64,000 bases of DNA, taken from contig OX393570.1 in assembly GCA_947652115.1 (NCBI GenBank), forward strand, positions 21,830,481-21,894,480, written 5' to 3'. Under the pieces are notes generated by a model. It saw only the letters and a list, made by a program, of their open reading frames with translations. It had not been told where the DNA came from and did no database searches. Source of the stretch: Blastomussa wellsi. Its lineage: Eukaryota > Cnidaria > Anthozoa > Scleractinia > Plerogyridae. This document shows positions 37,625 through 59,526 of this stretch, in pieces (within the stretch, counting starts at the first letter, position 1; each line of letters starts with the position of its first letter). The position numbers and the translations under genes are program-made.

Positions 37625-40600
37625 ATGTTCAGAACGTCATTCCAATTTGCTATTTTAATTGCGATTATTTCCAGATCACTGTCTTTCGCGAGAAACATTT
37701 CATTTCAGGTGAGTCAAGGGGTAAAAACCTTTTCTTTAATACATAGCCTCGTGGCCGAATTTCTTTGATTTTTCTGCCATGAATTGTCAGCGTTGAAGCG
37801 ATGGGCCTTTCCTCTGCAAATCTGATTCGTCTTACGAAGGAAAAGTTTAGTTTGAGAAACCAATTCAATTCAAGTATTTCGAAAGTAAATTCAGCTCTTT
37901 TGGCAATAGAGAAAACTATCAAAGAATTTTTAATCCACAAAACAACTGAACCAATTTGAAGCAAATAAATGTGAAATTTGCATATATTTTTCTCTTTAAA
38001 AAACCTTGTCTGACGACCTGCTGCATGTTACTAAATCAATTCAAAAATTATGTTATGTATTTAATCTGCCTCTGCAAATTCAGCTCTTTTGGCAATAGAG
38101 AAAACTATCAAAGAATTTTTAATCCGCAAAACAACTGAACCAATTTGAAGCAAATAAATGTGAAATTTGCATATATTTTTCTCTTTAAAAACCTTGTCTG
38201 ACGACCTGTTGCATGTTACTAAATCAATTCAAAAATTATGTTATGTATTTAATCTGCCTCTGTCGCTTTTTATGGCTTTAATTTGTACGAAACCAAGGAG
38301 AAACCAACCGTAGCCAAATATTCGTTGGATAATTGATTATTTTTAGCTTGTCTTGGCCGCGAAAGGCGGTTGTGGTATAACCGGTTTTTTCAGCCTGACA
38401 ATTACCTGAAAATTAATTTATTTCTTATCGTTATCTGATAAGAATGGTTAAACTAAAACAAAAGTTATTATGAACACATGTCACCATTAGCGTGTTATAC
38501 TCAGGTGCATCAGAAGTCTGTTTAGCGCGTTTAAAGTTAACAGAATTCTCGTACCAGTTTGTAATGTTATCCAATGTGAAATAGCGTCATTGTACCTCAA
38601 GTACAAGTGGCTTTGGAGAAACGATTTGATTGGCTAGATTTTAACAAAAGGAAAAACGGGAATAACCAATCAAAACACAAGTCTAAAATGCCTTTGCTGA
38701 AAGAGAGTTAAACTTCATTTGTCAAATCTAGTCAAACAAATAATGTGCTCCAAATTTCAATAAGCACACCCAGAAATCACTTGAAATAAGTTATAACAGA
38801 AATATCGGTCAGTATAAAATATGGACTGTGGACTACGGACTACGGACTACTACTACTACTGAGGTATAAAATATGGACTAGGACTGCGGACTGGGTATAA
38901 AACACGGACTGAGGTATAAAATATGGACTAGGACTGCGGACTGAGGTATAAAATATGGACTAGGACTGCGGACTGGGTATAAAACATGGACTGAGGTATA
39001 AAATATGGACTAGGACTGCGGACTGAGGTATAAAACACGGACTGAGGTATAAAATATGGACTAGGGCTGCGGACTGAGGTATAAAATATGGACTAGGGCT
39101 GCGGACTGAGGTATAAAACACGGACTGAGGTATAAAATATGGACTAGGACTGCGGACTGAGGTATAAAACACGGACTGAGGTATAAAATATGGACTAGGG
39201 CTGCGGTCTGGGTATAAAACACGGACTGAGGTATAAAATATGGACTAGGACTGCGGACTGAGGTATAAAACACGGACTGAGGTATAAAATATGGACTAGG
39301 ACTGCGGACTGAGGTATAAAATATGGACTAGGTCTGCGGTCTGGGTATAAAACACGGACTGAGGTATAAAATATGGACTAGGGCTGCGGACTGAGGTATA
39401 AAATATGGACTAGGACTGCGGACTGGGGTATAAAACGCGGACTGAGGTATAAAATGCGCGCTGGGATTAAAACATGGCAAAGTACCGTCGGCTCCTGGTA
39501 CAGTAGAGTGGGTAAAATGTGAGTTTCCTCGTAGCACGAGTCAAGTGCGAGTCAATATGTTTTCACCTCTTTTTTCTTTCAATAATATCCTTTGCTTGTA
39601 ATTGTTATTGCCCAACAAAATGTCTTAACTGCAGAATACCCTGCCACTCGAGGTAAATTCCATGTAGCCGGCTACGCGGTAGGCAGAAAACAATTGATTA
39701 ATTCAAATAAGAAATTAAATTTATTCAATGGACAAATGACAAGAAACGACAGCAAAACCGGACATTCGTTGATTTGATTGCGGTTTTAGGAAGATCAGTT
39801 GGACTAAAAAAAGTGAAAATTAAGAAGTCGTTGACCTTGGATGGGTGGCGGAAAGTAAATCATCGTTGTTATACTTCTGTTTCATTTTGTTTTACAATAG
39901 CAATTACAGTCAAACTAAACCATCTTTATTAAAAAAAAGAAGAAAAGACAGCAAAAAAAGAAAAAAAAACATTAACTCGAACTTGACTCGTGACTCGAAC
40001 TTCAATCGTCTGCTCTCGCAGGTCAGAAATTGACTCGTGCTGCGAGGAAACTCATGTTTTACCCACTCTACGGCACTTTACCGTGTTTTATTCCCCAATC
40101 CCCATTTTATACCTCAGTCCGTGTGTTATACCCAGTCCTGGTCCATATTTTATAGCTCAGTCGATGTTTTATACCCAGTCCGTAGTCCGTAGTCCGCAGT
40201 CCGTGTTTTATACTGACCGTAACATATATATAAACAAAATCGGAGCTTTACAATCCCTCGCACCCTACCGTTGCCACTAGGCAAAGTTTTTGATTAATTT
40301 TTGACATTTCTTGTTCAAGAGGCCAATCAAAATGCAAGATATGAGGGAGCTGGGGCCGACCGGGCACAGCAAACTATGAGGGAGCTGGGGCCGACTGAGC
40401 ATATGAAACTATGAGGGAGCTGGGACCGACCGGGCATAACAAACTATGAGGGAGCTGGGCCGACCGGGCATAACATACTTGACATCTCTGCCTCTCACCA
40501 AATTAAACAGTTGCAAAAAATATGTGAAAAAAAAAACGTTTGAAAGCTTTGTCTAGTGGCAGCTGTTCGACGCGCAGCACTGTAATAATTGTTTTTACTG

Positions 40601-41469
40601 ATTGCTTACTTCTGTCTGTAGGATGAAGAAGTCGGCATCCGGGAATTCAATAAATTTGCTACACGAGAAAGATCTCGGTACCAACATTCCCAGCAGTCCA
40701 AGAGAGGTAAGAATCAGTGATTACTCTTTGGTCAGCACCCATTCACAATTCCCAAAAGTACGACATTAAACATTTAACCAAGATTAGCTACCGCTGCGCT
40801 TGGGTTAGCCTAACTTAGAACCCAGGTTAGCCCCTTCGTGGTTACCTTTCATTTTTTGGTAAGGGCAATATCCTTGTGACTAGTGTGAACTTGTGCCGAC
40901 CTAACTCTTGATCCTAAGAGTGCTGACCGGATTTATAAAGCAGTTTCCTGACCCAGTAAACTAATTACCTCTGACCGTGAAGCCCGGATAATGCTTATTA
41001 TACATTATCATGATATTGATTATAATTTTTGAAATGAACCGGATTAGTTTTCCTTTCTTCAGGTGGAGTGAAACTTCCTGAAGTTGCTTGTAAACCTCAA
41101 CCCGAGGTTGTCCAAGTTGAACCTGACGTCACGCACGTGAGGAACATGCCACAGTTTGTCACGGTTACACGCTGCAAAGGGGCCTGTGACCGAGCTCTTG
41201 ACTCGCAGAGATGTTCACCGAATCAAACGCGCCTTATTCCAGTCCAAGTGACGTCGGCCGACGGCGCAACCTACACCCAGAAAGTAGAAGAGCATTTGGC
41301 ATGCGCGTGCAAATGCCAAATAGCGTGTAGTGTGCATCATTACCCAGACGAGAAGAATTGCCGCTGTGACTGTACAGAGAAGTGCAAGGGAGATGAAAAC
41401 CAAGATCCGATCACATGCATGTGTACTCCAAGAGCAGGAAAACGAAGAGACGAAACAATAGACTATTGA
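37625..41469 (+). CDS. PDGF/VEGF-like secreted growth factor A
   Basis: A predicted secreted cystine-knot ligand of the PDGF/VEGF family, expected to act on receptor tyrosine kinases at the cell surface. Exons: 37625-37708 (signal peptide, MFRTSFQFAILIAIISRSLS), 40622-40706 and 41063-41469; phases 0 and 1 join cleanly to about 191 residues. The third exon carries the PDGF domain: ACKPQP, RCKGAC, RC and HLACACKC give six knot cysteines. The two cysteines that link VEGF-A chains (C51 and C60) are absent: MPQF and KGAC stand there. The tail has two CxCxxxC blocks (CRCDC, CMC) like the VEGF-C/D tail and ends basic (RAGKRR). A decayed copy lies 4 kb downstream. Intron 1 is full of repeats. A short (ATAA)n run at 41627 may serve polyadenylation. 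VEGF-like versus PDGF-like cannot be decided by eye. Confidence 0.82.
37887..38264 (+). repeat. 189-bp tandem duplication in intron 1 of growth-factor gene A
   Basis: Two copies with a 189-base offset, each starting AAATTCAGCTCTTTTGGCAA and ending AATCTGCCTCTG. They differ at only a few bases (CACAAAAC/CGCAAAAC, one A fewer in an A run), so the duplication is recent. Confidence 0.9.
38807..40218. mobile_element. foldback element with tandem-repeat arms rich in TATAAAA
   Basis: Outer ends CGGTCAGTATAAAATATGGA (left) and TTTTATACTGACCG (right, inverted) with ACTACGGACTACGGACT next to both. The left arm expands into a ~640-bp array of ~51-bp units, each with GAGGTATAAAATATGGACTA and GAGGTATAAAACACGGACT. 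The right arm (40080-40215) has only a few units. A second inverted pair lies further in: GTAGAGTGGGTAAAATGTGA (39504) against the inverted copy at 40049-40068, with GCACGAGTCAA. It lies in intron 1 of growth-factor gene A. Confidence 0.8.
40337..40475 (+). repeat. ~37-bp tandem repeat (4 units)
   Basis: Unit AACTATGAGGGAGCTGGGGC followed by CGACCGGGCATAAC, in four slightly different copies, 150 bases before the second exon of growth-factor gene A. Confidence 0.85.
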
Positions 41470-42893
41470 TAATTTATTGGATAGTTTAGAGTACAAACTG
41501 TTGAGCAATTTATTTAGTTCTATGCAGCCTACGTAATTAAGCTGGTATACCATTTTTATATACTTACAGGTGTAAAGTAAAATGCTGTTGTAACAATATA
41601 ACTTTTCATGCAAATTAAGTTGTTATAAATAAATAAATAAATAAATAAATAAATACAACAAATCTTACGAAAAAAACTGACTATTTTGTTCTACATTGCT
41701 TTCAATTCCGGCCGATCAATTATTTTAATATTTCGAAATGCTTCTTTTACGCGCCTGTCGACCTAGAATTTTACTAATTACTCTTTGGGGACTCCTGTTT
41801 AGATACTACATAGATGCAATTTACACTGACAAAATGTATTCACAACCGCGCGCTTTGGCTTAAGAACAATTGACGATAAAAATTATGGACGATGGGTGTG
41901 CGTAAAGACTCTGCAAGAAATAGAGTTGTACATACGTATGCAAAATGTGCATTTCCATTTACGCATAAACTGTATAACAAAATCCAAGGCCGGCTATTCG
42001 TTTAAGTTAAAATAGAATGAAGGAAACTGAATGGGGATGATCAGGCAAAGGAATGTTTTGTAAGTACAGCAAAATATTCTAGAAGTAAACCGGCAACAGC
42101 GTTTGAGAAAATCAAACATTTTTCGAATCACTGAGCCGACAAAAATTCAATTCGTCCATGTGTATTCGTTTTAGTTTGATAACGCAACTTTTCCTTGTGG
42201 ACTGGCCTTTCGTCCACACATCTGCAGTGAAAACGGTAAACGATCCGGAAAAGAATGCCTCTCTGCCATCTAAAAATTATTCACAATAAAATGTTAAATA
42301 AAGATCTCTTTTCAGGGTAACTGTTGCAAACGTTTCGCGCTTAGCCCTTCATCAGTGGAAATCAGTCGGTTGAGTTCTATTGATGAAAGGCTAAGCACTC
42401 TTTCAAACAGAAAGGGCTTGTGGGAGTGTTTTAGTAAAAATCGGGAAACACGATTTATTTCTCTAATAATCTAAACGAATATGTGTTAGACGTCCAAGGC
42501 GCTTTGTCGGTGAGAGTTTGCTAAATGGCCTACTTTTTAACAGCTGAACAAAATTGAAACAAATTAATGAAGCTTTACTAGATGCAGTCATTAATGGATG
42601 AAATTTATGTATGTACCAATGAAATCATCGCAAACCAAATGAGCTTTATTGTGTTTGCCTGCGACCAGCTGGCGTGTCGCCTACTTTTCCGGTAGTCGTA
42701 GAAACGGCCACTGTTTTAACGTGTTTGTTGCCGCATTACAGACCATGTGACATTCTCTAGAGAATTGTTCTTTTATCCATCCAAACTCCATTTATTCATG
42801 TACACGAAACTATTTGAAAATTTGAAAGAAAGAATTCTCAAGAGTATGATCACATGGTCTGCAACAAACCGCCCAAGCGAGAAAGGTCTATTG

Positions 42894-43062
42894 TATCAGT
42901 GGAGGATCCAAACGTTCCTTTCTGTGGGCCTTAAATTAAAGTGGGGGCCCAAGAAACTGTCGGCACTTCGAACCTTTCATCCATCATCCATTTTCATCCA
43001 TAATGGTGGTGGGGGGGGGGGGGGGGGGAAGGGGGCTCCTCTTCATCCGCCACTGAGTATAC
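42894..43062. mobile_element. MITE with GTATCAGTGGAGGATCC ends
   Basis: GTATCAGTGGAGGATCC at the left pairs loosely with CATCCGCCACTGAGTATAC at the right. The interior holds a run of G (43010-43028). The CAGTGGCGGATC-type terminus is common in hAT-like MITEs; the assignment is inference. Confidence 0.5.
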
Positions 43063-44565
43063 AGGTTAGGATTTTGGTAAAAACAGCTGCCAGATACTAG
43101 GTTATCGAAAAAAATTAGTCAACGTTCAGAAGAAAATTAGGCTGTCCAATCTCGCTATTTTAGGAGTTACACCTCATCTATCTCTTGTTCCCCATCCTTC
43201 CTGCCCAGGGCCAGGTAGTTCAGTGTTAACACCGCGATTATATCGTGAACACGGATTAACGGACGGAAACGTAAAGTGTTTTCTTGTACATGTAGAAATA
43301 TACAGTTTATTTTATTCCTTGCCACAAATTCAGTTTCACAAGCTAAAGAAAAGAAACTTATGTAAACCAATTATTATTGTTTTCGAACATCCATTCATTT
43401 TAACGTTAGATAAATTTATACTTTCACATGTGATATTTAACTTGCCATTAAGGTGTACACACCTTTGCATAAGATCACTGAACTGAAAATGTCGCGCACG
43501 TGAGGCGGCCACAAATGACTTATTGCTAAAAAAGCTACCATAAAAACTACATTAGACCCCCGTGGAAATACGCAAACCAGCATTGACCCGATTTACCTCC
43601 ACCAGCTTTCCAAGATCGATATCGCAATCCATTAACACAATTATACAAAAAACAGTCATTTTAGGCGACTGAAATAATGCTAAATAATTTCCTACTCTGA
43701 ATTTTTTTTATGCACAATTGTTGCTGACAAAAAAAGTTGCCCGAGGCGAAAAGGCAATGAATATGATTTCGTGCATACAGCTAGTACAACGAATGGTCAC
43801 GACAAATTAAAAAGGGACATATTTTCCCTAATACGCAGATATTCGCCTTTCAGCTCTAGCCGTATGTAGAAATGAAATGTATGTATGTAGTTCTACTTCA
43901 TCTGCTTTGATTCATTGCAACTGGGTAAAGTTGGCTTATTTAAATTTACACTATGTCCTTTATTCATCTGCCGCATGAGCGATCCAAATCGGGCGATCTT
44001 TGCTTATGTTGGTGTTATTAAAACAGAAATTAGTCTGTCGATCTCGCCAAATTATTTCTAAGCTGTAGCTGCAGGAAAATATGGGTGTAACTTGTTGATG
44101 TTTCTGTTGAAAAATGCCAAAACTGGCATCATTAAATGGCGGGTAACAAGATCTACCACCTGGTGATTTACATAGCAGTAAAATAACTGTGGCAAGTCTG
44201 GAGCGTACAGCCTTTGAACCGTTCCTTTTGAAACACAGCGAACTAACAAGGCTATGCGTGCTCCTCTTAATTGTCATATCTTCATAAAATAGACGAATTC
44301 TTACATTAGAGATTGTACTATTGTGCGGCCGGCAACTCAACTTTTTGTAACAATTTATTTCCAAATTAAGAAACAAGTTTGCCTTTCGCTCAACTGGCAT
44401 ATTTAAGCTCAAAACATATTTCATATACAGTTAGTTCATTAGTACAAGATTGGAACCTTACCGAAAAACAACTGATTGTAAATAATATATCAACCCCCTT
44501 TCCCCACCTCGTTTGTGTGCTCCTCGCCCCCAATTCCACCAGATGGCAAATAATTTATTCGCCAG

Positions 44566-44596
<31 letters not shown>

Positions 44597-44726
44597 TTCC
44601 AAACAGCGCTAAAACATCCAAAGTCCAGTTTGTTTCTTTTGCTTATGTACTCTAACTGATAGGTGATTAGGGGCACGCCCCCTTCCTCTAATAAGCCCTC
44701 ATCTCTAGTCAATTCCTCCGTATTAT

Positions 44727-44933
44727 CGGAGCTGCGTCACCATATTTTGAATTATTGTTTTGCGACGAGCCAAATTCCCCTTAAAATGTAGGAAACCTAA
44801 AAATAATAGTTTGCTAAGGAAGAAAAACAACAAAGAAGTGAAACAAGGATGGTTGAGGATGGAGAAGACTGAGACGGATTACAAATGACGAGTTTGAAAA
44901 ATATAGGCACAAACCGTGACGTAGCTTCTTTAA
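44727..44933. mobile_element. MITE, GGAGCTGCGTCAC family, copy 1
   Basis: GGAGCTGCGTCACCATAT at the left and GTGACGTAGCTTC at the right are inverted; internal AAAATGTAGGAAACCTAAAA is shared with the shorter copy at 60267-60360. Confidence 0.6.
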
Positions 44934-45642
44934 AGCCCCGGATGAGTTTGATTGAGCTATCACGTGAAGTGTTTCATAAACAAAAACATGTCTTAATTCC
45001 ACTTTCAATTCTTGTCAAAAATGATCGCGCCATGTCATGATAAGGTGATTATTAGCGTAGCATCTGTCTTTTAATTAATATTTGCAGCTGTTTTATTCTT
45101 TTAATGTACTTTACCCCACCAAGAAAAAAACTAGTTTGTAAGTGCTTTTCAATTAAAAGGAAAACCGACGCCAAGCTGCAATCATTCAAGCAGGCGGCGA
45201 GGTAGCGAGATCAGAACTACAGCATGTGGTTGAAGGCCAATTTGCTGTTTGCACTCCGTTAATTTCTCGTTCCGTGTCCTTTGCAAGAAATAATTCACTT
45301 CAGGAGTGTCTGAGTTTTTTGTTTAACGTTTCCTTTTTTAAGTAAATTGTGGATTCAATTCGTAAATATCAATTCTCAAAATCTTTAAAGCAACCAGTTT
45401 GTATTGCAACTGTTTTTCAGCTGTATGTATATTTTTGTGATCTTTAAAAAAAAAGAAGTTTTAGCAGTTTAAGTTCGACACAAATTCCTTTAATTTGAGA
45501 CACAATAGGAATAAACAAGTATATAAGGATGAAAGAAATTTTTTCAAGCAGACAGCTATAGAGCTTACAACGTTTCCTTCTAAATTATACTAGTTCTACG
45601 TTTGATAACCTGCATGACATTATCTGTTTGTCGCACCTATAG

Positions 45643-46260
45643 GAGGAAGAAATCAGCATCCGGGAATTTAACAATTTCTCCCCAAGAAGGAGAACCAGCC
45701 TTTTCCATGCATCCAAAGAACCAGGGATCACCTCGTTTGGTGATGGTCACCATAGAAACCAAATGTATGACACAGTAAGAGTTTTTTCAGTGAACTACTG
45801 CTGGCCGCGAAGCCTGAATGATGTTTGTTTCGATATCCATATTTTTAACTACAGTTGTTCAATAATTGGATAGTTTTTTCTTTGTTTTCACATGGGGAGA
45901 ACTCTCTTGAAACTGTTTTCTCGCCTTACCCCGATGCTACGTTCGTGCGGAACAGACCGGAGTTTGTAACGGTTAATCGCTAAAAAGGGACGTATGACCT
46001 GCCTGTTAACTCGCAGAAATGTTCACCGATCAAAAGGCACTATATTCCTGCCGTGGCAACGTCATCCGCCGACGGTAGAACATACTACCGATTTGTAGAA
46101 GAGAATTTGGAATGTGCGTGTGAATGCCAGATCATGCACCACACGGACGCCATATAAGAGTTATGACTGCATAGAGAAGTGTGAGGAAAATGACCACATG
46201 CGTGTGCACTCCAAGCACAGGGAAACGAAAGGACAAAATAATGGAGTATTCGTCAATAAG
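45643..46260 (+). pseudogene. decayed PDGF/VEGF-like gene (copy of growth-factor gene A)
   Basis: Exon 45643-45774 (EEEISIREFNNFSPRRRTS) matches the second exon of gene A. The third-exon counterpart at about 45893-46250 retains ATFVRNRPEFVTVNR and FVEENLECACECQI but is broken in several ways. The splice acceptor AG has become AC, the first knot cysteine is lost, the cysteine after VNR is a TAA stop, and the frame shifts after the CxCxC block with two further stops. No signal-peptide exon is seen. Homology to gene A is clear at both DNA and protein level, so this is a tandem duplicate that died. Confidence 0.8.
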
Positions 46261-46305
46261 AAAAAAAAGATATTAACTGGTGATTGTCGCCGGGCTTGGC
46301 GATAA

Positions 46306-47055
46306 GATTAGCTATTTTCTCTGAGGAGTGGTGGTGACACTTGATATGCAATTTTATTTGGGCTGGCGCTCGCGCTGGTTTCATTTAGAATCTACGACAC
46401 CGTGCTGTCGAGTCCAAGAAAAGCCGTGAAAGACTGAACTATGCACGGCTACAACCCTGCTTTATCGGTTTCGTGTTGAGGAGTCGCAAAGTCCAGCCTT
46501 GCAGTTTTTATTTTTGGCTGATCTCTTGCAGATCCCACGTAAGTTGGTTTATCGATTTCGGTCATGTTGATATCTCGCAAAGTTAAATTTTTACGTGGTA
46601 TCAGCGTTGCAGTTTTGTTTGCGCAACTTTTCAGAATGAATCTAACGGCTTGTGGGAAATTGAACTGTGCAGTTTTTCACCTGAAAGAAACTTTGCACGA
46701 GAAAGTAAATGTTGCGTGTACTGCTGATCTTTATTCACAGGAAACGACAAAACACAGCAGCTGAGATAGATTTACGTTTATTTTGAGCTTTAACATTGAC
46801 ATTACATTTCCCATACATTCCTTTATAATTCGAACATACAAACAGAAAGACCACTTGTGTGGGCTCCCTGTACTTTATTAATGCACAATACTGTTCTCGC
46901 GTACCAATTACTAGTACAGATTGCCACAAGTGAAGTTTAATAAATAAATAAATAAATAAATAAATATCGTTTATTCCACTCTCTTGCAGATAACTGAATT
47001 AACAAGCGGTTAAAATTAACAATAGTGCTTTCAGAATATTTTTCATTAATCTGAA
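46306..47055. other. intergenic between pseudogene and gene C
   Basis: No gene recognised. An (AAAT)n run occupies 46939-46967, and on the minus strand TTTATT motifs at 46940-46975 offer polyadenylation signals for gene C. Confidence 0.4.
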
Positions 47056-48555
47056 CTAAACTCTTCCTTCAAATGCTCCAATGTGTTCATCAAGCTCGCA
47101 CATGCACGAGTCTTCGCTCCATCTAAATCCAAACTCACACTTCAGTTGGTAAATACTACACCGGCATTGACACAATTCTCTATCCCATCGTTTGATTTCG
47201 TTTTTCCTACATTCGTCTTCACCACCATCAATACATACACATTCACAAATATCGCCAGCAAAACGTTGCCAAGAATAACACTTCTTCGGTAAGCAGGCAC
47301 ATCCACAGGCTGTGTGATTCCTCATTACAACTAGTTCGATTTTTTCACCCAAGTTTACCGCAATGGTAACGTTATTCTCTTTTGTGACAGCGCAATAACC
47401 AATCCCTAGGAAGAAAAGTAAAAACGTTCGAAAATTTAACAATTAGCAATTATTCTACGAGTTTAGCGGAGGCTACGCTTCGTTGGCTATTTGCGCATAA
47501 AAAACTCGGGTTCGCAGTCTCTTTGTGCTTGTAATTTTTTACTTGTGTGATGCTGAAGGCCTGCATAAATGGTTTCCTTCGCAGTCGTTATTTAACAAAA
47601 AATGCAAAGGAATAAAATCACGTACACATGAAAGAGAAGGCGAGAGAGAAAAAAACCGCCATGCACAAAATCGACCAAGATAACGCGTCGCTGCAACATG
47701 CCTTTTTGCCCTCCCTTGTGTGTTCACTTATTGTAATTATATGTCTCGGAATTATGTCCCTGTAACAAGCCAGCATTTAAACTCTGACGCCAGCCGGGAC
47801 GAATCAGTCAACTTACTTGGAGATATAGAACAGCCTCCAGCGCAGCGATGAAGTTTAACAAAGCTCGGCATATAAAAGCTTCGCCAATCTCTGGGCCCAG
47901 GCACCTGTACGATGCTAGGATACGGCTGGCAAAACATCATATGCAGTCTAACAACTTCTCTGTCTCCGCCTTTCTCTAGTCCGTTTACTACTAATAAAGA
48001 ATTCAGAACGGAGTCAGAGTGATGAAATATTTTGTCGCCTACTAAATATTTTGTCTAGTACCCCACAGCAAATCCGGACTACACTTATCAAGTTTTGCCC
48101 GTGCGAAGGCCTGTACTTTAACAGAGCTAGATTGAGGGCGAAGGACAAGTACAATCAAGAAAGAAAGCTTGCGATTTCTGTCCCTTTCTAATTGTACGAA
48201 ATATGAGAGAACATCTTCTTGCAGTATACATGCAATGTACTGTGGTTTTTGTGTTGACCTGTATTGTGTGGAAAACTGTAGCACATCTCACCTTCCTTAC
48301 CGTGTTCAGCTCCCAAGCGATTGTTGTCTTCAATTCGTTTGTTTTGGTGGTGCCATTTCAAGAAGCCTATTTTTATCTCTCGTGTATTTTCTGGTATGTC
48401 TTCAATGCGCTATTGAATTCAATAAAAACACGTCGCCATAATGGGTGGTTTAATTTAGTTATGTTTACGCATATATTTATTTTTACGCATATATTTGTAC
48501 TGTAAGGCTCTATTGAACCGTTGGGAAATAGCGCGGTATAAATTTATTATTATTA

Positions 48556-48632
<77 letters not shown>

Positions 48633-49739
48633 AAACTCCAGATGGTGTCAGTAGGAAGGGATATATAAACCTCTAGGCCGCTGGAGGCATTTTCCATTTA
48701 AGTGCCATTAACCGTCACATTTCCAGATGGTAATAAAAGAAATTAGTGGGCGTGTTTTTGGTGCTGTCTTCCCACAAAGGCCTAAACAGTCGCGCACCTT
48801 TTTTTGTGAACTTGCTTCAAATAAGCTGTTATCTCTATCGTAAGATATCAGTTTTCTTTAGTGCTTCCTGTCCGTTCATGAAAAGCAATTAGCTGCCGTT
48901 AGCCCCCGAGGGCTTGCTGGAGGTTTTAAGACGAGTTCAGATAATTATTTACAAGCACACGAAAGACTTATTGGCGTTCTGGAATTAATATTTCAGTAAA
49001 TCTCTCATTTGTTTTAGTTCCTCTGAATGTGTGGGTGTAATGTATTTGAACAAATGACAAAATATATGAAAATGAAATACCAAATAAGTAGATTATCGGA
49101 AACGCGAAACTCAGTAGAAATAACGTTGATAAATGAGTAAAAATTCATGTTTTCAGCTTCGGATACTAAATATAGATCTATATAGAGGTTGCACCAGAAT
49201 TCCATCGTTTATCACATTGCTAATCATGTTTGTTAAATTGCTTGAACCATTCTGGGGCTGTGGGTTATGGCTTTGTGCGTAGTTTATGATAGAAACTAAA
49301 ACGTTTCCTTTTAAGGTTAAAAGTTAGAATCGATTCGTCCCTTAATGCCAAACCATTAATACAATTCTTTTTAGAAAGGGAATAAAAATTACCCTCAATT
49401 AATGGCATCCAGCTTAATTTCCATTTACTGACGTCGTCACTCTTATCGAACTTTTAAAGATAAACCAATGTCCTCAAACATTGGATAGGTATTTGTTGGT
49501 CCCCGTTAATTTGTATTATGATCATAAGGAACAAAAATCTTCAAGGCCTTCCTGTAATAAAGAGCCTTGAATTTTCACGTGAAGTGAGAAATAATTAAGG
49601 CTGACATCCCCGTCACTGATGGAAATAGTTTTTTTCTTACCTTCAAAGTATCCAAAGAAATCGCCTTTTGCTTGATTCGCAAAGATACTGCGATAGTACA
49701 CAAGAACGCGAAGTTCAGTAATATCGTGACTTCCTTCAT
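47056..49739 (-). CDS. PDGF/VEGF-like secreted growth factor C
   Basis: Minus-strand exons found: 49739-49641 (signal peptide, MKEVTILLNFAFLCTIAVSL), 47975-47817 and 47405-47056. The second encodes FCQPYPSIVQVPGPRDW and KLHRCAGGC, the third GYCAVTKENN and HTACGCACLPKKC, so the cystine-knot domain is split by an intron. The tail has CECVC, CQCRC and CMC blocks and ends AFEGRV. The junction 47817/47405 is in frame; the one from the signal-peptide exon to 47975 is one base out of phase, so a short exon of 3n+1 bases between 47976 and 49640 is probably missing, as genes A and D have one or two exons there. Like the others it lacks the VEGF-A interchain cysteines (MPSF; AGGC). A TATA-like TTTATAAGG lies about 70 bases upstream of the ATG. 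Confidence 0.78.
47976..49640. other. intron of growth-factor gene C
   Basis: Contains an (ATT)n microsatellite of about 80 bases (48545-48625). No exon could be assigned with confidence, although one is expected from the phase mismatch. Confidence 0.4.
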
Positions 49740-49806
49740 TGTTCTGTGGTACGTGTACAGAAGCTAAAAGTTCAATGTATAATGGTTATCCCACTGATTG
49801 ACAGCC

Positions 49807-49816
49807 TTATAAAGAC
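49807..49816 (-). promoter_or_regulatory. TATA-like box of growth-factor gene C
   Basis: CTTTATAAGG on the minus strand, about 70 bases upstream of the initiator at 49739. Gene D has a TATAAAG at a comparable distance. Confidence 0.5.
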
Positions 49817-50339
49817 AGATGGTCTGCAGGAACTGATCCATAGCGAGCAAATTGTACTAAATTACCATAATTAATTCTGTTTTATTTATTTATATTAGTT
49901 CTCATATCAGGACTTCAAGATGTTTTAAACTGGACTGAATAATTTTTCATAACCTCGCTCCCGCGAGTAAAAATTATTACTTAATCCCGATGATTCCCTT
50001 ACAATTTTTGTAGAACGTAGTTTATTCAATGTTTACTCGACTATTTATTGTAATTTATCGATGTAGATGTTCGCAATTATATCATAAGTATAAATTAAGG
50101 CAAATGATATATTGTAAGGTAGCTATGAGATAACTTACTTGTAAACCTGAAATAACGCTAAACGAAGTCTAAAAATGAACAAAAAATGAACTTCATCTAT
50201 ACTTGGCCTCTTTAATATTAGCTTTGTTTTACGCAGCGTCGGTTTCAAACCACGCGATGATTTTAATATATAGTTTTAGCCAAGCCTACTTGAAAAGCTG
50301 AGCTCCGTATTTTTGCTGGTTCTTACAGCGCGAAAGGGC

Positions 50340-50551
50340 TAAGTGTGGCCACCCAACAAACTTTTTTGACGAGTTAGCCAATCAGAGAGCGCGGATTTGT
50401 TTGAGTTGTCCCGCCTCCTTGTTGAAAGCGCGACAGGTTTCGTGACAACAGCTTTGAACATTGTAAGGAGGCGGGACAGCTCAAATAAATTCGCGCTCTC
50501 TGATTGGCTAATTATAACTTGTCAAAAAAGTTTGTTGGGCGGCCACACTTA
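50340..50551. mobile_element. MITE with ~90-bp inverted arms
   Basis: AAGTGTGGCCACCCAACAAA at the left and TTTGTTGGGCGGCCACACTT at the right are inverted. Pairing continues through AGCCAATCAGAGAGCGCG and TGTCCCGCCTCCTT, leaving a loop of about 30 bases. Confidence 0.8.
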
Positions 50552-50842
50552 GGCGCGTCGCACTGTAATAATTTATCTGAAATAAATAATTATTGAAAAC
50601 GTCAACTCGAATTGCAGAATTCCCACTAAGAATGACCATAAAAAGTTAAAAAATGCTGCCAGAAGAAAAAAATCGGACCTAAACCCGCGATCAATAATGA
50701 AGAAAACCAATGCCTGGTCAGCGGTCAACTTAAAAAAAACACGTTACCTCGATGAGATCTAACCTGAGCCCCGAGCTGGTCATGTGATACTGGTCAGCGG
50801 ATACCTCGATTTGACAGCTGTCAATCGACCATAACATGGATG

Positions 50843-51538
50843 TAATTCGGTTTTATCAACTGGGTTGATAATGTGAATTGGCCACTGTAAAGAAATTCGA
50901 GAGCTGACGTTTCGAGCGTTAGCCCTTCGTTGGAGCGAATCAAGGAATTGTGTTTTTGTCGTCTTTCTCTACGTCACGAAGGTGTTCTCGGAATCGGTCG
51001 CCTAGTCCTCTCCCTGTTTCGCCGATGTATAACTTTTTGCAAAGAGTGCAAGTTATACAGTAGATGGCATTGGCTGAGGTACAGGTGAAATGATCAGTGA
51101 TCTCGATGGATCGCTTGGGTCCCGATATTTTGTCAACGTTGTGAATGAAAAGGCATGTTTTGCATCGTGCGCGAGCGCATTTAAAAGTTCCGAGTTGATC
51201 ACTTCTTTGGAATGCACTTCTGACTAAAAAGTTACCTATGTTTTTGTCGCGTTTGAATGAAATCGATGGAGGTTGCGAAAAGATTCTACCAGTGTCGGGA
51301 TCATTTTGAAGTAATTTAAAGTTTTTGAGAATGATGGATTTTACTGCGTGATTGTGAGGGTGAAATGTAAGGGTGAATGGAATTCTATCGTTGTTTTCTC
51401 TCTGTGACGTTTGTAGTGCTGACTGTCGATCAATTTGTTCGGCGCGATGATGGCCCGCTTGAACAACAGAAGCAGGATGCCTTCGATAGAAACTTTGATA
51501 TCCAGGAATGCTAAGGAAGTATCGGAAATTTCCCAGGT
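50843..51538 (-). mobile_element. Penelope-like retroelement remnant with GIY-YIG endonuclease end
   Basis: Minus-strand coding from 51535: a short piece with DTSLAFLDIKVSI (end of the reverse-transcriptase region), a frame change, then a long open stretch with RIFSQPPSISFKRDKNIGN and the GIY-YIG-type AIYCITCTLCKKLYIGETG followed by DRFREHLRDVEK. The order and motifs are those of Penelope-like elements. The protein stops at 50945 where the noncoding terminal sequence follows directly, so the last part of the endonuclease is deleted. The reverse transcriptase is almost wholly missing. Confidence 0.85.
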
Positions 51539-51909
51539 ATATTTAAGGGCAGTTGATACCGAAGAGAAAACTTGAAATTGTCACGAGCGAACACCGCCAC
51601 GCACAGTTGAGACAAACGGTACGATCGTTGTTTTCCCTGTTTCGAACTTTTCTCATAAACATCGCTAATATTTACCTTCCAAATGTTGCTGTCATAACAA
51701 CTCGAGTTCAAAAGGGATGCAATCGAAATTAATTGAAAACTCCGTGCCATACAGCCAAAATTTCTATCGATCTGTTTTCGTGGCGAACGAACAAGTTGAA
51801 ATTTCATTGTTCTGTACTCGACTTTTCATTGGTTGAAGTTAAAAAAATACAGAAATCTATTATTTCCGTTCTGCTTTTTGATTGGTTAACAGTAGCCGCA
51901 CTGTAATCC

Positions 51910-52170
51910 TCACTGTATCAACGAATGCTTTTCATTCAACTAATTTATTCTGTTGTTTTTCACGTTCCCAGGCACCGACCAATAGCATAGCTCCATCTTT
52001 CTGTATATAAACCACACACGACCCATAATTCCTCGATTTGCTCCGACGAAGGGCTAACGCTCGAAACGTCAGCTCTCGAATCTCTTTACGGTGGCCAATT
52101 CACATTCTCAACCCAGTTGATAAAACCAAATTATCTTGTTATACTTCCCACCGACGCAGAAACTCACCCC
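51910..52170 (+). mobile_element. Penelope-like element noncoding end (copy 2)
   Basis: Shares CAACGAATGCTTTTCATTCA, CCAATAGCATAGCTCCATCT and CGAAGGGCTAACGCTCGAAA with 20455-20712, and ends TTATACTTCCCACCGACGCA. A fragment of the same tail lies at 57475-57532. Confidence 0.65.
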
Positions 52171-52174
52171 CTCG

Positions 52175-52410
52175 ACTCTAACAAGGCTCTAACAAACGCT
52201 ATTTGAGGAGTAATATGTGTAAATGAAATTCGTCGCAGAAAACTTGAGTATCGTCTCAATTTTTGTAGATATTCTCGAAAAAAAAAACTCAAATTTCGCG
52301 TCTGTATCCCAGAAGATTGCCCGGGTCTCTTGATTCCCAGCAAAATGTTCAGATTTCTGGAAGAATTTGGTTTTTCTCTCGAAACTCACCCTCAAAGAGC
52401 TGACACCCCC
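52175..52410 (+). repeat. interspersed repeat family R2, copy 1
   Basis: Corresponds to 63020-63255: CTAACAAACGCTATTTGAG (CTAACAAACGCTGTTTGAG in the other copy), GATTCCCAGCAAAATGTTCA / GATTCCCGGCAACATATTCA, and GCTGACACCCC / GTTGACACCCC at the end. Diverged. Confidence 0.6.
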
Positions 52411-54063
52411 GTAAGCTAATAAATGACCTTGTTGGCCCTACGAGCACCCTCAAATGTGGTTTAATATCGGTTCGAGTTGTTCTTTGTCTCACCCACGTTC
52501 AGTGATCAACAGTTCATCTTTCACTTGGATTACCGATCTAAAAAAAGTTACCTTCTTTTTTCATCTACTAAATAATAAGTTGTCACAAGAATGTTTCAAG
52601 TCTAATATAGTACAATTGACTTGTTATTGGCACAAATCAAAGGCGTGGAAGCCGAAAATCAGTGTTTCTTTTAGATTTACGGGTTAAGTAGTAGTTCGCT
52701 CAAAACCAAGCAAATTGTCAATAAAATTAAATAAAGGTACAGCAAAATAATTATCCCTGATTTATCTTACTGTCATGAATGATGACCTTGAGACTATATA
52801 GTCGAATGCTTTTTACAATTAAGTTTGGTTTATTTTGTTTAGTTAAGACTAGTTTCTCTCTCAAATTTGGGGAGTGTTTTCAGTCGTGTAAGAAATTAAA
52901 CGACTTCTACTGATGGTATCATGGCAAAAGCAGAAGGTAAATAGTCGTTCGGAAATATGGCAAGAAATTTTCAAATAAGAAGCTTTGAAGTTCGACAAAG
53001 TTTTAGAGGTTGAGATTTTAAGGAAAATAATAACACAATAAAAAGCAGATAAATTATATTGATATTTCATTTTATATAAAATAAAAACTACTCTGAGCAA
53101 TGGGTTATTTTAAATGTTTACTGAAGAATAAATTTGTAAGTTGAAAGAGGTAACAAAAACTGTTAAAACGTGATTTACTTCCCAATCAATGTTCAGAATG
53201 TTTGCATTACAATCAAGGAACAGAGGTGGTGTTCATTTAAGTTCTCCAAAAATCTCTTTGAAGCTTGCGACCGAATATGGACTGTTCCCAGGGGCATTTT
53301 CTATCGACGTAACAAACTTGTTTTCTTCAAAATAAAACGTGCTAATTAAAATGAAACGTGATTGCAAAATAATACAACTCATAATTTAAAGATAATATTA
53401 CTTACTATCAATTTCCAAACATCCGTTGATTAAAATCTGGATCATGTTCTACATGGCTTTTGTTTTCCTTTTTGTTTTTGTTTAAAGATGCCCATGCTTT
53501 TACGTACGTTTAACGAACAGTTAAGAAGGATTCACTATAGTTTACTGCGATTGCATAAAATCAAATCTTGATTTTTTTGTGTGTGCGGGAACTGCAACAG
53601 GCAGTTAAAGTAAACAGTTTAATTATATAGTTCCCTAGCTTTAAGAAGTTGAGTGCTCACTTCCATTCCATATTTTTGTTGAACAAGCAATTTGGGGAAC
53701 AAATTGTGTCTGTAAATGGGTATATGTTACAAGTATCAGTTCTCAAGGAGAGTGAAACTGAATCGTTGCCTCAGAATTTGGTCGGTTTGTAAAGCGACAA
53801 GAAAGTCCATACTAGAGACTGAACGGGCAGAGAATTAGTCCTAGCTTTCAAATCTCCAATGGTGTTTTAGAGGCACGAAATTTACTTCACGCCGCACTAC
53901 ATTCATTGTTTTGTAAATACCTTCTTTTCTCCTAGGAATCGTACGACCGACATGTAAGTACCCCTGGAAACCGGCATCATTCTCTTAAGTGACCAATGCC
54001 ATTAGACGTACTGATTGACGTCAGCAATGTAAAGCCAGTTCAGTGTCAATTTCTCTTTGCATG

Positions 54064-54070
54064 TATAAAG
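54064..54070 (+). promoter_or_regulatory. TATA-like box of growth-factor gene D
   Basis: TATAAAG at about 100 bases upstream of the ATG at 54171. Confidence 0.5.
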
Positions 54071-54170
54071 TAGAATGTTTTGTGGCCAGTGATTGATCTC
54101 GGTACAGCACGCTTGTAGACTTACCTTACAGGAACGTAAGTAGCACCCTGACCTTCACCGCCAAGAAAAC

Positions 54171-57100
54171 ATGTTAAAATTCGTGTTTTGTGCTACGTTT
54201 TTCGTTCACGCGCTAACATCAGGCTTATATCAGGTATGAAAGGATAGTTATCATGGAAATTATGACAGAGTACTATAGGTTCTTGCGTATTACTGAGCTT
54301 CTCGCAAATTAAAAGGCATTTGGAAAAGTATGCGGATAAAACTCAAGACTACAGGCGAGCTGTTTGCGAAAATATTCATATTTAGTCCTGTCGTAACTGA
54401 ATTCATGAACTCAACTGGTGCTATTGTAGCTCGAAGCAACCTATCCGGATTATTGTAAATATAATTCCCTTGGTGAGTGAATCATCTTTGGTAAAAAATA
54501 ATAATATTCCAATAATTTTGTCTTCGATAATTGCCTGCGAAGACCCGAATGACAACAGTCGTTTGCATTTTTTAAAAGATTTAAAGCCGTCCCAAGGCGT
54601 TGTGTGGGCAATGTATAAGATCTACCAAATATTCGATCTGAACTCATTAATAATAACATTTCACATTTCAATGAGGCACTCTTCGCATAAAAGTTACTAT
54701 TGGATATTCATCGAATTATGTTCGATCAGAAATACATCTAAATACTGTTAAAAATGGTTAGATGGCAAGAGTAGTTAAAGTTGCGACCGTCCAATAAAAT
54801 ACTTCCTATTTTTAAAAACTGTACTGTTCGGCACAAGGAATTTCGTTGGATGAAAACGTATTTCATTGCAAGATATTTTGTTGTATAAAACGTTGGATAC
54901 CAAACGAAATAAAAAATCAATTAATATTATCCAACAATTTATTTTTGCAAAGTGTTGGCGAAGCTAGCATAAAGTAATTACTACATATACATGTTTTGTA
55001 ACAGATTTTTTAAACGGACAGAAGAAAGACTGCATACAGTTTTAATTAAGTTCTGTTGTTTATCATAACGGGTTTAAATATATTTTTATGGAGTTTCACG
55101 AGCTATACTCAGTCGTAGAACAGGAAGCTCTCTTTTGAAAACTTGTCGTTTGTTTCCATGGTCGCGTTTCGTTCGCAGTATGCATTAAATTTTATGCAGT
55201 TCATAAGAGGTTATTTGCAGGAAAAATTGTGTTCAGGAAGAGAGAAAAAAGGAAAGGAAAGAAAAAATTCCAAATCGTTGACGAGTATCCCTGTCTTTTC
55301 CATGTAATAGTTCCCCGGTGGATTATTTACGTTATTTTAAAATACGACCTAAGCAAGTTTTGATCTTCAAGTTTTAAATTAAATTTTCAGAAGTCGTGGT
55401 TTGATGACATAGACGGACCAAAATTCTTGAGAGGAGTCGAGGAACAAATCCAAGAGGAAAAGAAAGTGGACTCCCGTAATGTAAGTCTTTTTCAAGATCT
55501 AAAGCTTATATAACAACAAAAACAACATTTTATTACGTTTTCAATAAAGTTACAATCGCCTGGCACCACAGGTAACAGCGCTAATCGAGGCGGGCCAGGA
55601 TAATCGGAGAAAAAATGAAAATACGCGCTAAATAAAAATTAGATACGAGAACACAAATAGTGTGCAGAAACAGCTATGCAATTAATTGAGGCTGATAACG
55701 TATTACGTTATGAGAAGTAAATAAAAAGACAAAAATGAATAATAGAAGATAGGGCAAAAAAGCAGCTACTGAGAGTATTTTCTAACATTTGAGATAATAA
55801 ATTCTGATTCTTCTTACGAGTCTTCAGACTCTAATATATGCACACTTCACACTTAATTGTTTTTAAATTAAATGTTACAAAACACGGGCATAGCATGCCT
55901 TAATAGCCGAATTAAAAAGCTATACGAAAACAGAAATTAGGAAGTAAAGTAAAAGGGAATAACACAGTACTGACCTAATTTAAGACAGACGTTAAATGCG
56001 ATTTTGGTGTGCCACGCAGTTAAATCGGCCTGAAATCAACATTTTACTTTGGTGTATGTACACAAGCGAAAATTTTGTCTCGCCCCCCCGAGACAACTCG
56101 GGTAGGATCATATAAACTGTTGGTGGAATTTTTCAACATTTCAGTGAAAAGTTAGCTTCCCAGCTTAACTCGGGGATCATCATTTACCGAAACAATCCGG
56201 AAATAGAAAGACTAATTTTGTCTCCCTTAACGGAAATTTTCTCGGGAAAACGGAATTTCTCGAAAGGTAGACCAAAATTCCCAAACGGAATTTCCCAACG
56301 GAAAATGTGCTTACCATTTGCCATCCACCACAAGTTCCAGGCGCAATGCTAATATGTCAAACTCGACCTGGGCTTTCTCGGTAAGTTGGGTCTGCTTTGT
56401 AAATAGAACACGCCAATCCCAAACGGAAATTTCCATTGAGGATTTTTGCTTCCCATTTGCACAAACCGTCGACCAACCGGTAAACGGAAATGGTAAATAA
56501 CCCATATAAATTTGACGATTTATCCGCCTGAGACGGATAAACCGTCTAGGTATAAATCCGGAGTTTAGACGAATTATGTGGCCAAATTCGTCATAACACC
56601 GGATATATACTTAGACGATTTACCCGTCTCAGGCAGACGAATTACTCGAAATTACGTCTCATACGGCTAATTCGACTCAGACGGATGATTCGTCTTTAGT
56701 ATAAATTCGGCCAATGGGGCTTTATTTACATCGTGCATTGTTTCAGCTAGCAATATATAATACATGAAGCATAAAGGTAAAGTCTGTGTTCGAAGGAACA
56801 GAGGAACAGTGAGAGAATTTTCGCGTGATCAATGGTTGAAGCCTTGGTCTATCAGAGTATAAACCATGGAATCTGAATTAAATTTCTGAAAACTTAAAAA
56901 AATCTTCATGACGTTTCGAAAATAGAACCAGCGGGAACTAACCGAGATGTAAAAAGAAAATGCCAACTGGAATACTTATGACGAAATTTGCAACGCATTT
57001 TTCACCTTGCAAAAATTGTCTGGCATGCTGTGAAATTAAATTAGAAGTTACCTTCTGTTCAAGAAAAGCCACGCTGAATCTAGAAACGATGATAATGAAT

Positions 57101-59526
57101 GGAATCTGAACGCGAAGCTCTCTTTTAATTTGTTAATCATACTGGTAACCACGACGACTCCAATATCTTCACATCTGAAAGGTAAAATAAGGTATCTTCT
57201 TTGTGCACGATGACGATATGATTTTTTAGTGAAAGGGAAAATCCAGCTGGCATTTCATCAGTATCTATATAATAAAAACTACTTATTAACCTTGAACATT
57301 GAAGAAGTTTGTGGATGATTTTACAGGACTTTCCTAGCGATTTCAAAAGTCTTGCGAGAGATGAAATCGTAACTACAGCCTCATCGATAAAAGAATCAAT
57401 GATTTGTCAAGTGGCCGCGCATACAGACGGGATTAATACCACCAAGTGTAAGTACAGTATCTTTAAATTATGTTGTTATACTTCCCACTGACGCAGCACC
57501 ACAGTTTCTTTAGAAACTAACCCCCTCTATCTTTAAAAAAACCTACTCAGCGTCCGCCATTTTCCGTGCCATCGAAATTATGGAAATTGTATGGTGGAGC
57601 AAAATCTTATTGCATTGCTGTAAGTTATGCTACTGGACGTGTTTAAATTGCCTATAGCAAGTTTCTCCATAGGCGTACGGGCCGGGGCAGCTACAGCCCC
57701 CCCCCCCCCCACCCAACAAATTTTGGGCAAATCAGACTTTTTGGGCAGCATGAGAAAATTTGGGCCAAAAAATTGCCCGTACGGCTATGAGTTTCTCAGT
57801 GATGTCTTTCGTTTCGACGTACACGGTCATGTAAACAATAACAAATGTGTGGCTGACTAGGGCTACAAAGGCTATGACAGCACTCATTCCCAGTCCCTAC
57901 TTATTTGTCACGGAAGAAGCTTGCAGGATAAACCCTACTCTCATGTGATGCGTTTTAGTCAAATTCCTCTCAGGAGCGACTAGGAACGGTTCTAAAGCAC
58001 AGGGCAGAAAAAAGGTCACGATTAATCGATGATCGATAATCGATAATCGATAATCGGTGATGCCAGCAAGTAGGGAAGCCATGAGCCATCGATAACATGA
58101 TTCGGCTGGCTGGCCGCCTGATTGATGATTGGCTGGCTGGCCGACTGCATGGCTGGCTGGTCGGCTGGCTGACTGACTGCATGGCTGGCTGGCTGGCCGG
58201 CTGGCTGACTGCATGGCCTGCTGGCTGGCTGGCCGACTGCATGGCTGGCTGGTCGGCTGGCTGACTGCATGGCCTGCTGGCTGGCTGGCCGACTGCATGG
58301 CCTGCTGTCTGGCTGGCTGACTGCATGGCCTGCTGGCTGGCTGGCTGACTGCATGGCCTGCTGGCTGGCTGGCTGGCTGACTGGCCGGCCGACTGCATGG
58401 CCTGCTGGCTGGCTGGCTGAATGGCTGGCCGACTGCATGGCCTGCTGGATGGCTGGCTTACTGGCTGGCTGGCTGGCCGGGTGACTGTAAGGCCGGCTGG
58501 CTGGCTGGCATCTGGATGGATGGATGAATGGAATGGTTTGAATCATGTCAGGCTAAAAGTGGACATCTTAGGAGAGCAAGGGTGGCCCAGTGGTGAGAAC
58601 GCTCGCCTCCCACCAATGTGGCTCAGATTCGATTCCGGTCCAGTGCCATATGAGGGTTGAGTTTGTTGCTGGTTCTTTTCTCGCTCTGAGGGATAGAGGA
58701 CCCACATCACAACCAGCTGAGGCTGAGGTGGCTTCCTTTCTAAATACCGCAAAAAGGGTCGTTGCTTAGAAGGCCAGGATTTACAGTGAGGCATTTGTCA
58801 TATATTTTATATGCCTGAAAATGATTCTGATCTGTTAATTGACTTATTAACTCCATTTTTGTGTTTTCTTCACCAGGGGATAGGAGCAAGCCCACGTATG
58901 ATATATCTCAGTCGCAAAGCCATTTGAAGTTTAGGTGCCAACCTTACCCCACAATGGTTGAGCTGGAAAGACCGGCTGGTACCACTTTCCTTCCGGCTAC
59001 GGTGCCGCTTCATCGCTGCGTGGGCTACTGTGTAGCTCAGGATATCCAGAACTGTTCAGTTAAACGCCAAGAAGAAGTTGTATTGACAGTTTGGACGTCG
59101 TCGGGTAATCAAAATATCACAGTTTACAATCACACACAGTGTGGCTGCGCCTGCATTAAACGCGAGACTGACTGCGATAAAAAGCTCCAGAAATATGATC
59201 CGGAAATATGCGACTGTGAGTGTAAACACAACCAAAGCTCGTGCAACAGTTCTATACAGAGCTTTAATACCAAGAGTTGCAAATGCGAATGCAAAACCGC
59301 AGTGAAGCATTGCGACCAAACTTCAAATCACGAATGGAATTCAGATATCTGCGACTGTGACTGCACACAAAAGGTAAAAAAACGCTGTTGGCGAAAGGGT
59401 AAAGTGCTCAATGAAGTTACGTGTGCTTGTGAGTGTCCCACGGCCTTGCCAACATGCCCTGTAGGCACCTCGTTTCTGAAGTTCAACTGCACGTGTGTGA
59501 AGGACACTTCCGTGATTACTAAATGA
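54171..59526 (+). CDS. PDGF/VEGF-like secreted growth factor D with long CxCxC tail
   Basis: Exons 54171-54233 (signal peptide, MLKFVFCATFFVHALTSG), 55391-55480, 57327-57447 and 58877-59526; phases 0, 0 and 1 join to about 307 residues. The second and third exons form a hydrophilic propeptide-like stretch. The fourth holds the cystine-knot domain (FRCQPYPTMVELERP, LHRCVGYC, QNC, CGCAC). It is followed by five C-x-C-x-C blocks spaced by 10-20 residues (CDCEC, CKCEC, CDCDC, CACEC, then CTC at the end), the pattern of the VEGF-C/D tail. N-glycosylation sequons include NIT and NQS. The VEGF-A interchain cysteines are missing here too (VGYC). It is the most complete member. TATAAAG lies upstream and AATAAA at 59754. 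Confidence 0.85.
56505..56725. mobile_element. short element built of repeated GACGRWTTA motifs
   Basis: The ends CCCATATAAATTTGACGATT and (inverted) GGCCGAATTTATACTAAAGA are similar. Inside, GACGGAT, GACGAATT and their complements recur every 20-40 bases (for example GAGACGGATAAACCGTCT). It lies in intron 2 of gene D. Confidence 0.5.
57475..57532 (+). repeat. Penelope-like tail fragment
   Basis: TTATACTTCCCACTGACGCA, then ACAGTTTCTTTAGAAACTAA. The same end is seen, inverted, at 33525-33580, 25 bases after the third exon of gene D. Confidence 0.6.
58105..58505 (+). repeat. (TGGC)n-derived minisatellite
   Basis: Irregular repeats of CTGGCTGGCTGGCCGACTGC and ATGGCCTG. Long open frames on both strands (SQPASQPA-type or WLAGWLAG-type) are products of the repeat. 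It lies in intron 3 of gene D. Confidence 0.9.
58565..58795 (+). repeat. tRNA-derived SINE
   Basis: Box A TGGCCCAGTGGTGAGAACGC and box B GATTCGATTCC stand about 40 bases apart as in a tRNA gene. The body has TGCTGGTTCTTTTCTCGCTC and no tRNA fold at its 3' side. It ends about 80 bases before the last exon of gene D. Confidence 0.75.

What the first reader, a model, noticed from the sequence alone, without database searches (positions are those of the whole stretch)
37625..59526. Cluster of PDGF/VEGF-like growth-factor genes in both orientations
Three intact-looking secreted cystine-knot genes (A +, C -, D +) and one broken copy lie within 22 kb. They share a separate signal-peptide exon, the knot domain and CxCxC tails, but the tails and the intervening exons differ strongly in length. 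That means local duplication followed by diversification, rather than recent copying. Cnidarian VEGF-like genes are known; a clustered, diversified set like this would be worth describing.
Basis: partly seen in the sequence, partly recalled or inferred. Interest (0 to 1): 0.78.

Follow-up and report, generated by a model that had tools for sequence, protein, structure and literature searches.

The report
Coral cluster of VEGF-like growth factors
A stony-coral chromosome carries a small neighbourhood of old, strongly diverged genes for secreted VEGF/PDGF-like signal proteins, several of which also exist in other corals, plus one that has died; the protein family is already known, so this is mainly an addition to it.

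Summary
The window (contig C16 of a coral assembly, 75 kb from the contig end) has three complete secreted cystine-knot genes: A (+, 3 exons, 191 aa), C (-, 4 exons, 238 aa) and D (+, 4 exons, 307 aa), plus a wrecked copy B beside A. Each of A, C and D searched alone finds VEGF/PDGF sequences in the PDB at best E 2e-5 to 1.2e-4; A and D pass the Pfam PDGF cut-off; D folds like VEGF. Full-length homologs from Oculina, Orbicella and Desmophyllum fit the exon models. The types pair with genes of other sources, not with each other, so they are old; C-D neighbours recur in Oculina and Desmophyllum, judged by consecutive gene names. Most likely they are VEGF-C-like ligands without the two interchain cysteines, so paired without that disulphide. 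Receptor, processing and expression site are untested. Cnidarian VEGF-like proteins are published; this is a new member of a known kind.

The parts
37625..37708 (+). Gene A exon 1: signal peptide, ends phase 0 at GTGAGT
   Evidence: aligned end to end with Oculina P0027 and Orbicella P0030
40622..40706 (+). Gene A exon 2: short propeptide ending in a Lys-Arg pair about 10 residues before the first knot cysteine
41063..41469 (+). Gene A exon 3: whole cystine knot and short CxCxC tail with Gly-Lys-Arg-Arg near the C-terminus; stop included
   Evidence: (PF00341 32.5 bits)
45237..46250 (+). Gene B, pseudogene next to A: pieces of all three exons; no in-frame ATG ahead of exon 1, exon-1 donor lost, in-frame stop at a knot cysteine position, further knot cysteines lost, frame shift in the tail
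   Evidence: groups with Oculina LOC144639803
49641..49739 (-). Gene C exon 1: signal peptide
   Evidence: covered by Desmophyllum P0046 and by P0045
48301..48409 (-). Gene C exon 2: propeptide
47817..47975 (-). Gene C exon 3: first half of the knot; 5' edge less certain (another in-frame AG lies 15 bases upstream)
47056..47405 (-). Gene C exon 4: second half of the knot and CxCxC tail; stop included
54171..54233 (+). Gene D exon 1: signal peptide
55391..55480 (+). Gene D exon 2: propeptide
57327..57447 (+). Gene D exon 3: propeptide; the Lys-Arg pair that 8 homologs carry here reads Lys-Ser
58877..59526 (+). Gene D exon 4: whole knot and long CxCxC tail; stop included
   Evidence: (PF00341 28.6 bits)
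49740..54170 (.). 4.4 kb head-to-head interval between the start codons of C and D; room for shared regulation (not tested)
   Evidence: coordinates

Best explanation
The locus is an old cluster of secreted PDGF/VEGF-family ligands of the VEGF-C-like (CxCxC-tailed) kind in a stony coral. Shown from sequence: A, C, D (and E outside the window) each have a signal-peptide exon, a propeptide, a PDGF/VEGF cystine knot and a CxCxC tail of different length; B is a dead duplicate of A; the types have separate counterparts elsewhere, among them named corals. Inferred: the proteins are secreted, the propeptides are cut (A has basic pairs on both sides of the knot), the knots pair as dimers without the usual interchain disulphides because both those cysteines are missing, the tails hold the ligand in the mesoglea or on cell surfaces, and the dimers signal through a VEGFR/PDGFR-type receptor tyrosine kinase. 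Different tails and propeptides would then give ligands of different range and processing from one neighbourhood.
For: PF00341 over cut-off for A and D. Single-protein PDB searches: A best E 6.6e-5, 10 of 10 hits VEGF/PDGF; C best 1.2e-4, 24 of 24 VEGF; D best 2e-5, 7 of 8 VEGF. Profiles: ten rows (six own, four homologs) hit 43 PDB sequences, all VEGF, PlGF or PDGF, one of them only by its heparin-binding tail; A-type profile 18 of 18, best E 8.2e-8. D model pLDDT 88.5; 38 Foldseek matches at E <= 0.001 and all 50 rows shown are VEGF, PlGF or PDGF. Models collinear with homologs: A 73% with Oculina P0027, C 52% with Desmophyllum P0046, D 64% with Oculina P0002, E 55% with Orbicella P0038. Tree: A-type 100/100, psi-B with Oculina B 100/91, C-type 100/100, D-type 95/94, E with P0036 97/89. 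Knot identity 26 to 36% among A, C, D, E against 61 to 72% to one named ortholog each. C-D neighbours: Desmophyllum OS493_018357 and OS493_018358, both contig length 2,225,669; Oculina LOC144662304 and LOC144662305, both 34,344,248. Six D-type proteins of 302 to 311 aa (P0008, P0009, P0011, P0016, P0018, P0019) and one C-type (P0045, 231 aa) sit on contigs of 1.0 to 1.5 kb, too short for unspliced genes like those here, so probably transcripts (inference).
Confidence: 0.82

Rival explanations
1. Cys-rich secreted proteins that only look like VEGF: other cystine-knot families (Norrin, von Willebrand CTCK, glycoprotein hormones) or Balbiani-ring-like proteins, used for matrix or mucus rather than signalling.
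Against: PDB sequence hits are VEGF/PDGF for A (10 of 10), C (24 of 24) and D (7 of 8); all 50 shown Foldseek rows for D are VEGF/PlGF/PDGF; PMC6385260 itself says those coral proteins encode VEGF domains. A VEGF fold does not by itself exclude a matrix role.
Confidence: 0.06
2. Venom-type VEGF components made in stinging cells, diversified by tandem duplication as toxins often are.
For: PMC7460484 (passages) lists 'Snake venom VEGF' PDGF-domain transcripts in 2 of 4 cerianthids; clustering and fast divergence would fit.
Against: [quoted passage not shown] the CxCxC tails are those of ordinary cnidarian VEGFs (PMC10328876, passages); A, B, C and D types are kept between genera.
Confidence: 0.05
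3. Relic cluster: mostly decaying duplicates of which B is the visible end and only one or two still work.
For: B is dead; D lost a conserved basic pair; the C15 exon F3 lacks a knot cysteine and the CxC spacing.
Against: A, C, D and E keep open frames, splice sites and the six knot cysteines, and match homologs over their length.
Confidence: 0.07

Closest known systems
Cnidarian VEGF-C-like proteins (PMC10328876; Podocoryne and Hydra VEGF)
   Same: Knot domain followed by CxCxC (BR3P) repeats; one or both interchain cysteines frequently missing (passages)
   Different: No genomic cluster of cnidarian VEGFs in the passages seen (12 of 15 and 12 of 23 places; 'tandem' occurs 0 times, 'synteny' once); A has one full repeat by my pattern against three to five in most; A- and C-type homologs carry no PDGF label
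Human VEGF-C / VEGF-D
   Same: Knot with long flanking propeptides and CxCxC tail (architecture from PMC10328876 passages); sequence and fold hits
   Different: A, C, D, E lack both interchain cysteines; of the ten loci here only C12a has them
Drosophila PVF-2 and C. elegans PVF-1
   Same: Invertebrate PDGF/VEGF ligands that also lack one or both interchain cysteines (PMC10328876 passages)
   Different: Not compared by sequence here
Coral 'balbiani ring 3-like' VEGF-domain proteins (PMC6385260, Montipora against Acropora)
   Same: Multiple fast-evolving coral proteins with VEGF domains (section 7 read)
   Different: No locus arrangement in that section; orthology to A, C, D or E not tested

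Membership tests
PDGF/VEGF family | PF00341 domain over the curated cut-off (27 bits) | tested here: met
   A 32.5, D 28.6, E 32.7, C12a 35.2, C12b 30.4 bits. Not met for C, whose knot is split by an intron: first half 20.2. hmmscan of the A and D ORFs listed no PDGF
PDGF/VEGF family | Nearest solved sequences are VEGF/PDGF | tested here: met
   A 10 of 10, C 24 of 24, D 7 of 8 hits up to E 10
PDGF/VEGF family | The six cysteines of the knot itself (C ... RCxGxC ... C ... CxC) | tested here: met
   Present in A, C, D and E; several lost in psi-B
PDGF/VEGF family | PDGF/VEGF fold | tested here: met
PDGF/VEGF family | Secretory signal peptide | tested here: met
   Hydrophobic N-terminal exons in A, C, D, E, shared with full-length homologs; judged by hydrophobicity and homology, no trained predictor
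VEGF-C-like cnidarian VEGFs | CxCxC (BR3P) repeats after the knot | tested here: met
   Full repeats by pattern C-x(8-13)-CxCxC over the whole protein: A 1, C 2, D 4, E 3; A and C are below the published three to five
Covalent PDGF/VEGF dimers as in vertebrates | Two interchain cysteines (C51 and C60 of VEGF-A; role recalled and from PMC10328876 passages, numbers also in the title of 1mjv) | tested here: not met
   Missing in A, C, D, E, C12b and F1-F4, present in C12a: 1 of 10 loci; not claimed as covalent dimers
PDGF/VEGF family | Activates a VEGFR/PDGFR-type receptor tyrosine kinase | tested here: inconclusive
   PF22971 gave nothing in this genome nor in the 14 controls, so it says nothing; binding needs an experiment

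The most novel reading that the evidence does not exclude
The cluster is a conserved ligand array of corals in which knots free of interchain disulphides (types A, C, D, E) can exchange partners and form heterodimers, and the A type is a separate, unlabelled ligand class released as a near-bare knot by cuts at basic pairs on both sides, the C-terminal one being the Gly-Lys-Arg-Arg motif kept in 9 of 10 A/B-type proteins.
Probability: 0.15. Interest if true: 0.6.

Novelty: new member of a known kind. Interest (0 to 1): 0.38.

Why it matters
None of 9 A-type and 4 C-type homologs carries a PDGF label, so automatic annotation probably undercounts coral PDGF/VEGF ligands. Ten loci of this family (four with full gene models) in an animal without blood vessels, in two rows and two single places, let one ask what early VEGF-type signalling did, type by type, across corals.

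Tried and rejected
Recent tandem copying: rejected; knot identities among A, C, D and E are 26 to 36% and each is nearer to another source's gene. A single local origin of the whole C16 set: not shown and not rejected (AU p 0.334); likewise the C15 row (p 0.12). An intron inside the knot as an ancestral mark: C, C12a and C12b have one each at different places, A, D and E have none. Receptor search with PF22971: nothing anywhere, controls included, no conclusion. Further A-type copies elsewhere in the genome are not excluded: genome searches with A and with C12b did not complete. Three 5,000-base runs of N may hide copies: window-relative 64001-69000 and 114001-119000, and C15:1338815-1343814. 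F1-F4, C12a and C12b were not modelled to full genes. Literature: searches listed no paper whose title or abstract start describes a coral PDGF/VEGF gene cluster; two searches listed only 25 of 44 and 20 of 605 papers, and only open-licence PMC papers are held, so this is no proof of absence. P0022 was left out of the tree and out of its counts (its N-terminal part is unlike the rest).
Full report
Where it is. The window is contig C16:21830481-21894480 of a 367.8 Mb assembly in 124 contigs; C16 is 21,969,008 bases long, so the window ends about 75 kb from the contig end. The named sources among the protein hits are stony corals: Oculina patagonica, Orbicella faveolata, Desmophyllum pertusum. 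That the window is a stony coral is an inference from these; the species was not identified.

Gene models. Splice-checked models: A, 3 exons, 191 aa; C, 4 exons on the minus strand, 238 aa; D, 4 exons, 307 aa; and E, outside the window at window-relative 82240-88891, 3 exons, 293 aa, starting 23 kb beyond the end of D. Each reads open from Met to a single stop with GT-AG introns. In all four the signal-peptide exon ends in phase 0 and the knot exon is entered in phase 1. Homologs cover the models nearly end to end: A with Oculina P0027 (73%) and Orbicella P0030 (58%), C with Desmophyllum P0046 (52%), D with Oculina P0002 (64%), E with Orbicella P0038 (55%). The 5' edge of C exon 3 has an alternative in-frame AG 15 bases upstream. 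C alone in the cluster has an intron inside the knot.

The broken copy. B begins about 3.8 kb downstream of the end of A in the same direction and keeps pieces of all three exons. It has no in-frame ATG ahead of exon 1, has lost the exon-1 donor, has a stop where a knot cysteine should be, has lost further knot cysteines, and shifts frame in the tail. Over the aligned knot it is 69% identical to Oculina LOC144639803 and 58% to A, and it groups with the Oculina gene at 100/91. Oculina carries that gene on the same 14,573-base contig length as its A-type gene LOC144639802. So the A/B duplication predates the split from Oculina, and an intact copy exists there.

How many, and how old. Genome searches with D, C and E as queries, PF00341 and a regional profile search give A, psi-B, C, D, E on C16; four knot exons in a row on the minus strand of C15 at about 1,327,800-1,359,740 (F1-F4); and C12a and C12b: ten loci with open knot exons and one pseudogene, a lower bound. 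In a tree of 57 knot rows (105 columns; 19 of 53 inner branches well supported) A-type (100/100), C-type (100/100) and D-type (95/94) each include named corals; E joins P0036, of unnamed source (97/89), while the wider E group, with Orbicella, is unresolved and draws in C12a at low support. Identity among A, C, D, E is 26 to 36%, to one named ortholog each 61 to 72%. Linkage elsewhere, inferred from consecutive gene names and equal contig lengths, not from coordinates: C-D in Desmophyllum and Oculina, D-E on a contig of 595,490 bases (P0001, P0037; unnamed).

How it most likely works. From the family: secreted, cut, paired ligands for an Ig-type receptor tyrosine kinase (established knowledge of the family, not tested). 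What sets these apart: both interchain cysteines are missing in nine of ten loci and kept in C12a, so pairing would not rest on them; a VEGF-A with those two cysteines changed has a solved structure, 1mjv (title seen). A has Lys-Arg about ten residues before the first knot cysteine, a basic pair there in two of the three homologs that reach this region, and Gly-Lys-Arg-Arg near the C-terminus, kept in 9 of 10 A/B-type proteins, the tenth reading Gly-Ser-Arg-Arg. Eight D-type homologs keep Lys-Arg in the propeptide where D reads Lys-Ser. Tails of 50, 78, 123 and 98 aa (A, C, D, E) suggest different matrix retention (inference). C and D are head to head with 4.4 kb between start codons, which would allow shared regulation (untested).

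What is known. PMC10328876 (passages) reports 72 VEGF-like proteins among about 115,000 cnidarian proteins and VEGF-like sequences in 7 of 18 annotated cnidarian genomes; they are VEGF-C-like, typically with four repeats, and frequently lack one or both interchain cysteines. PMC6385260 (section 7) notes multiple fast-evolving coral proteins labelled balbiani-ring-like that encode VEGF domains. PMC7460484 (passages) lists PDGF-domain 'venom VEGF' transcripts in cerianthids, with most such candidates weakly supported. None of the passages seen describes a gene cluster.

Noticed in passing
C15:1327800-1359740 of the same genome (loci L028-L031): Row of four PDGF/VEGF-like knot exons (F1-F4), all on the minus strand; F3 lacks one knot cysteine and the CxC spacing and may be decaying.
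   Followed up: partly
window-relative 82240-88891 (C16:21912720-21919371), outside the window: Fifth cluster member E, complete model of 293 aa.
   Followed up: yes
window 26553-30553 +: Retrotransposon remains: gag-like, reverse transcriptase, RNase H and integrase domains in two overlapping open frames.
   Followed up: no
window 50943-51542 -: Frame with a GIY-YIG endonuclease-like end (21.0 bits, just under the cut-off of 22.6) between C and D; perhaps a Penelope-like element (element name recalled).
   Followed up: no
window 10848-11192 +: Biotin-attachment domain exon (PF00364, 33.3 bits), perhaps a carboxylase gene flanking the cluster.
   Followed up: no
window 5161-8003: Repeat-like low-complexity stretch with strong AT skew (-0.629 in 6001-8000), open in several frames; no tandem-repeat program was run.
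   Followed up: no
P0047 (Oculina LOC144662305): The annotated C-type protein runs on where the knot intron begins, as the window's own C would if unspliced; a wrong model or a retained-intron form.
   Followed up: no
window 44976-45015 and 37408-37448: An 80% identical block of about 41 bases upstream of the first exons of B and A, possibly old promoter sequence.
   Followed up: no
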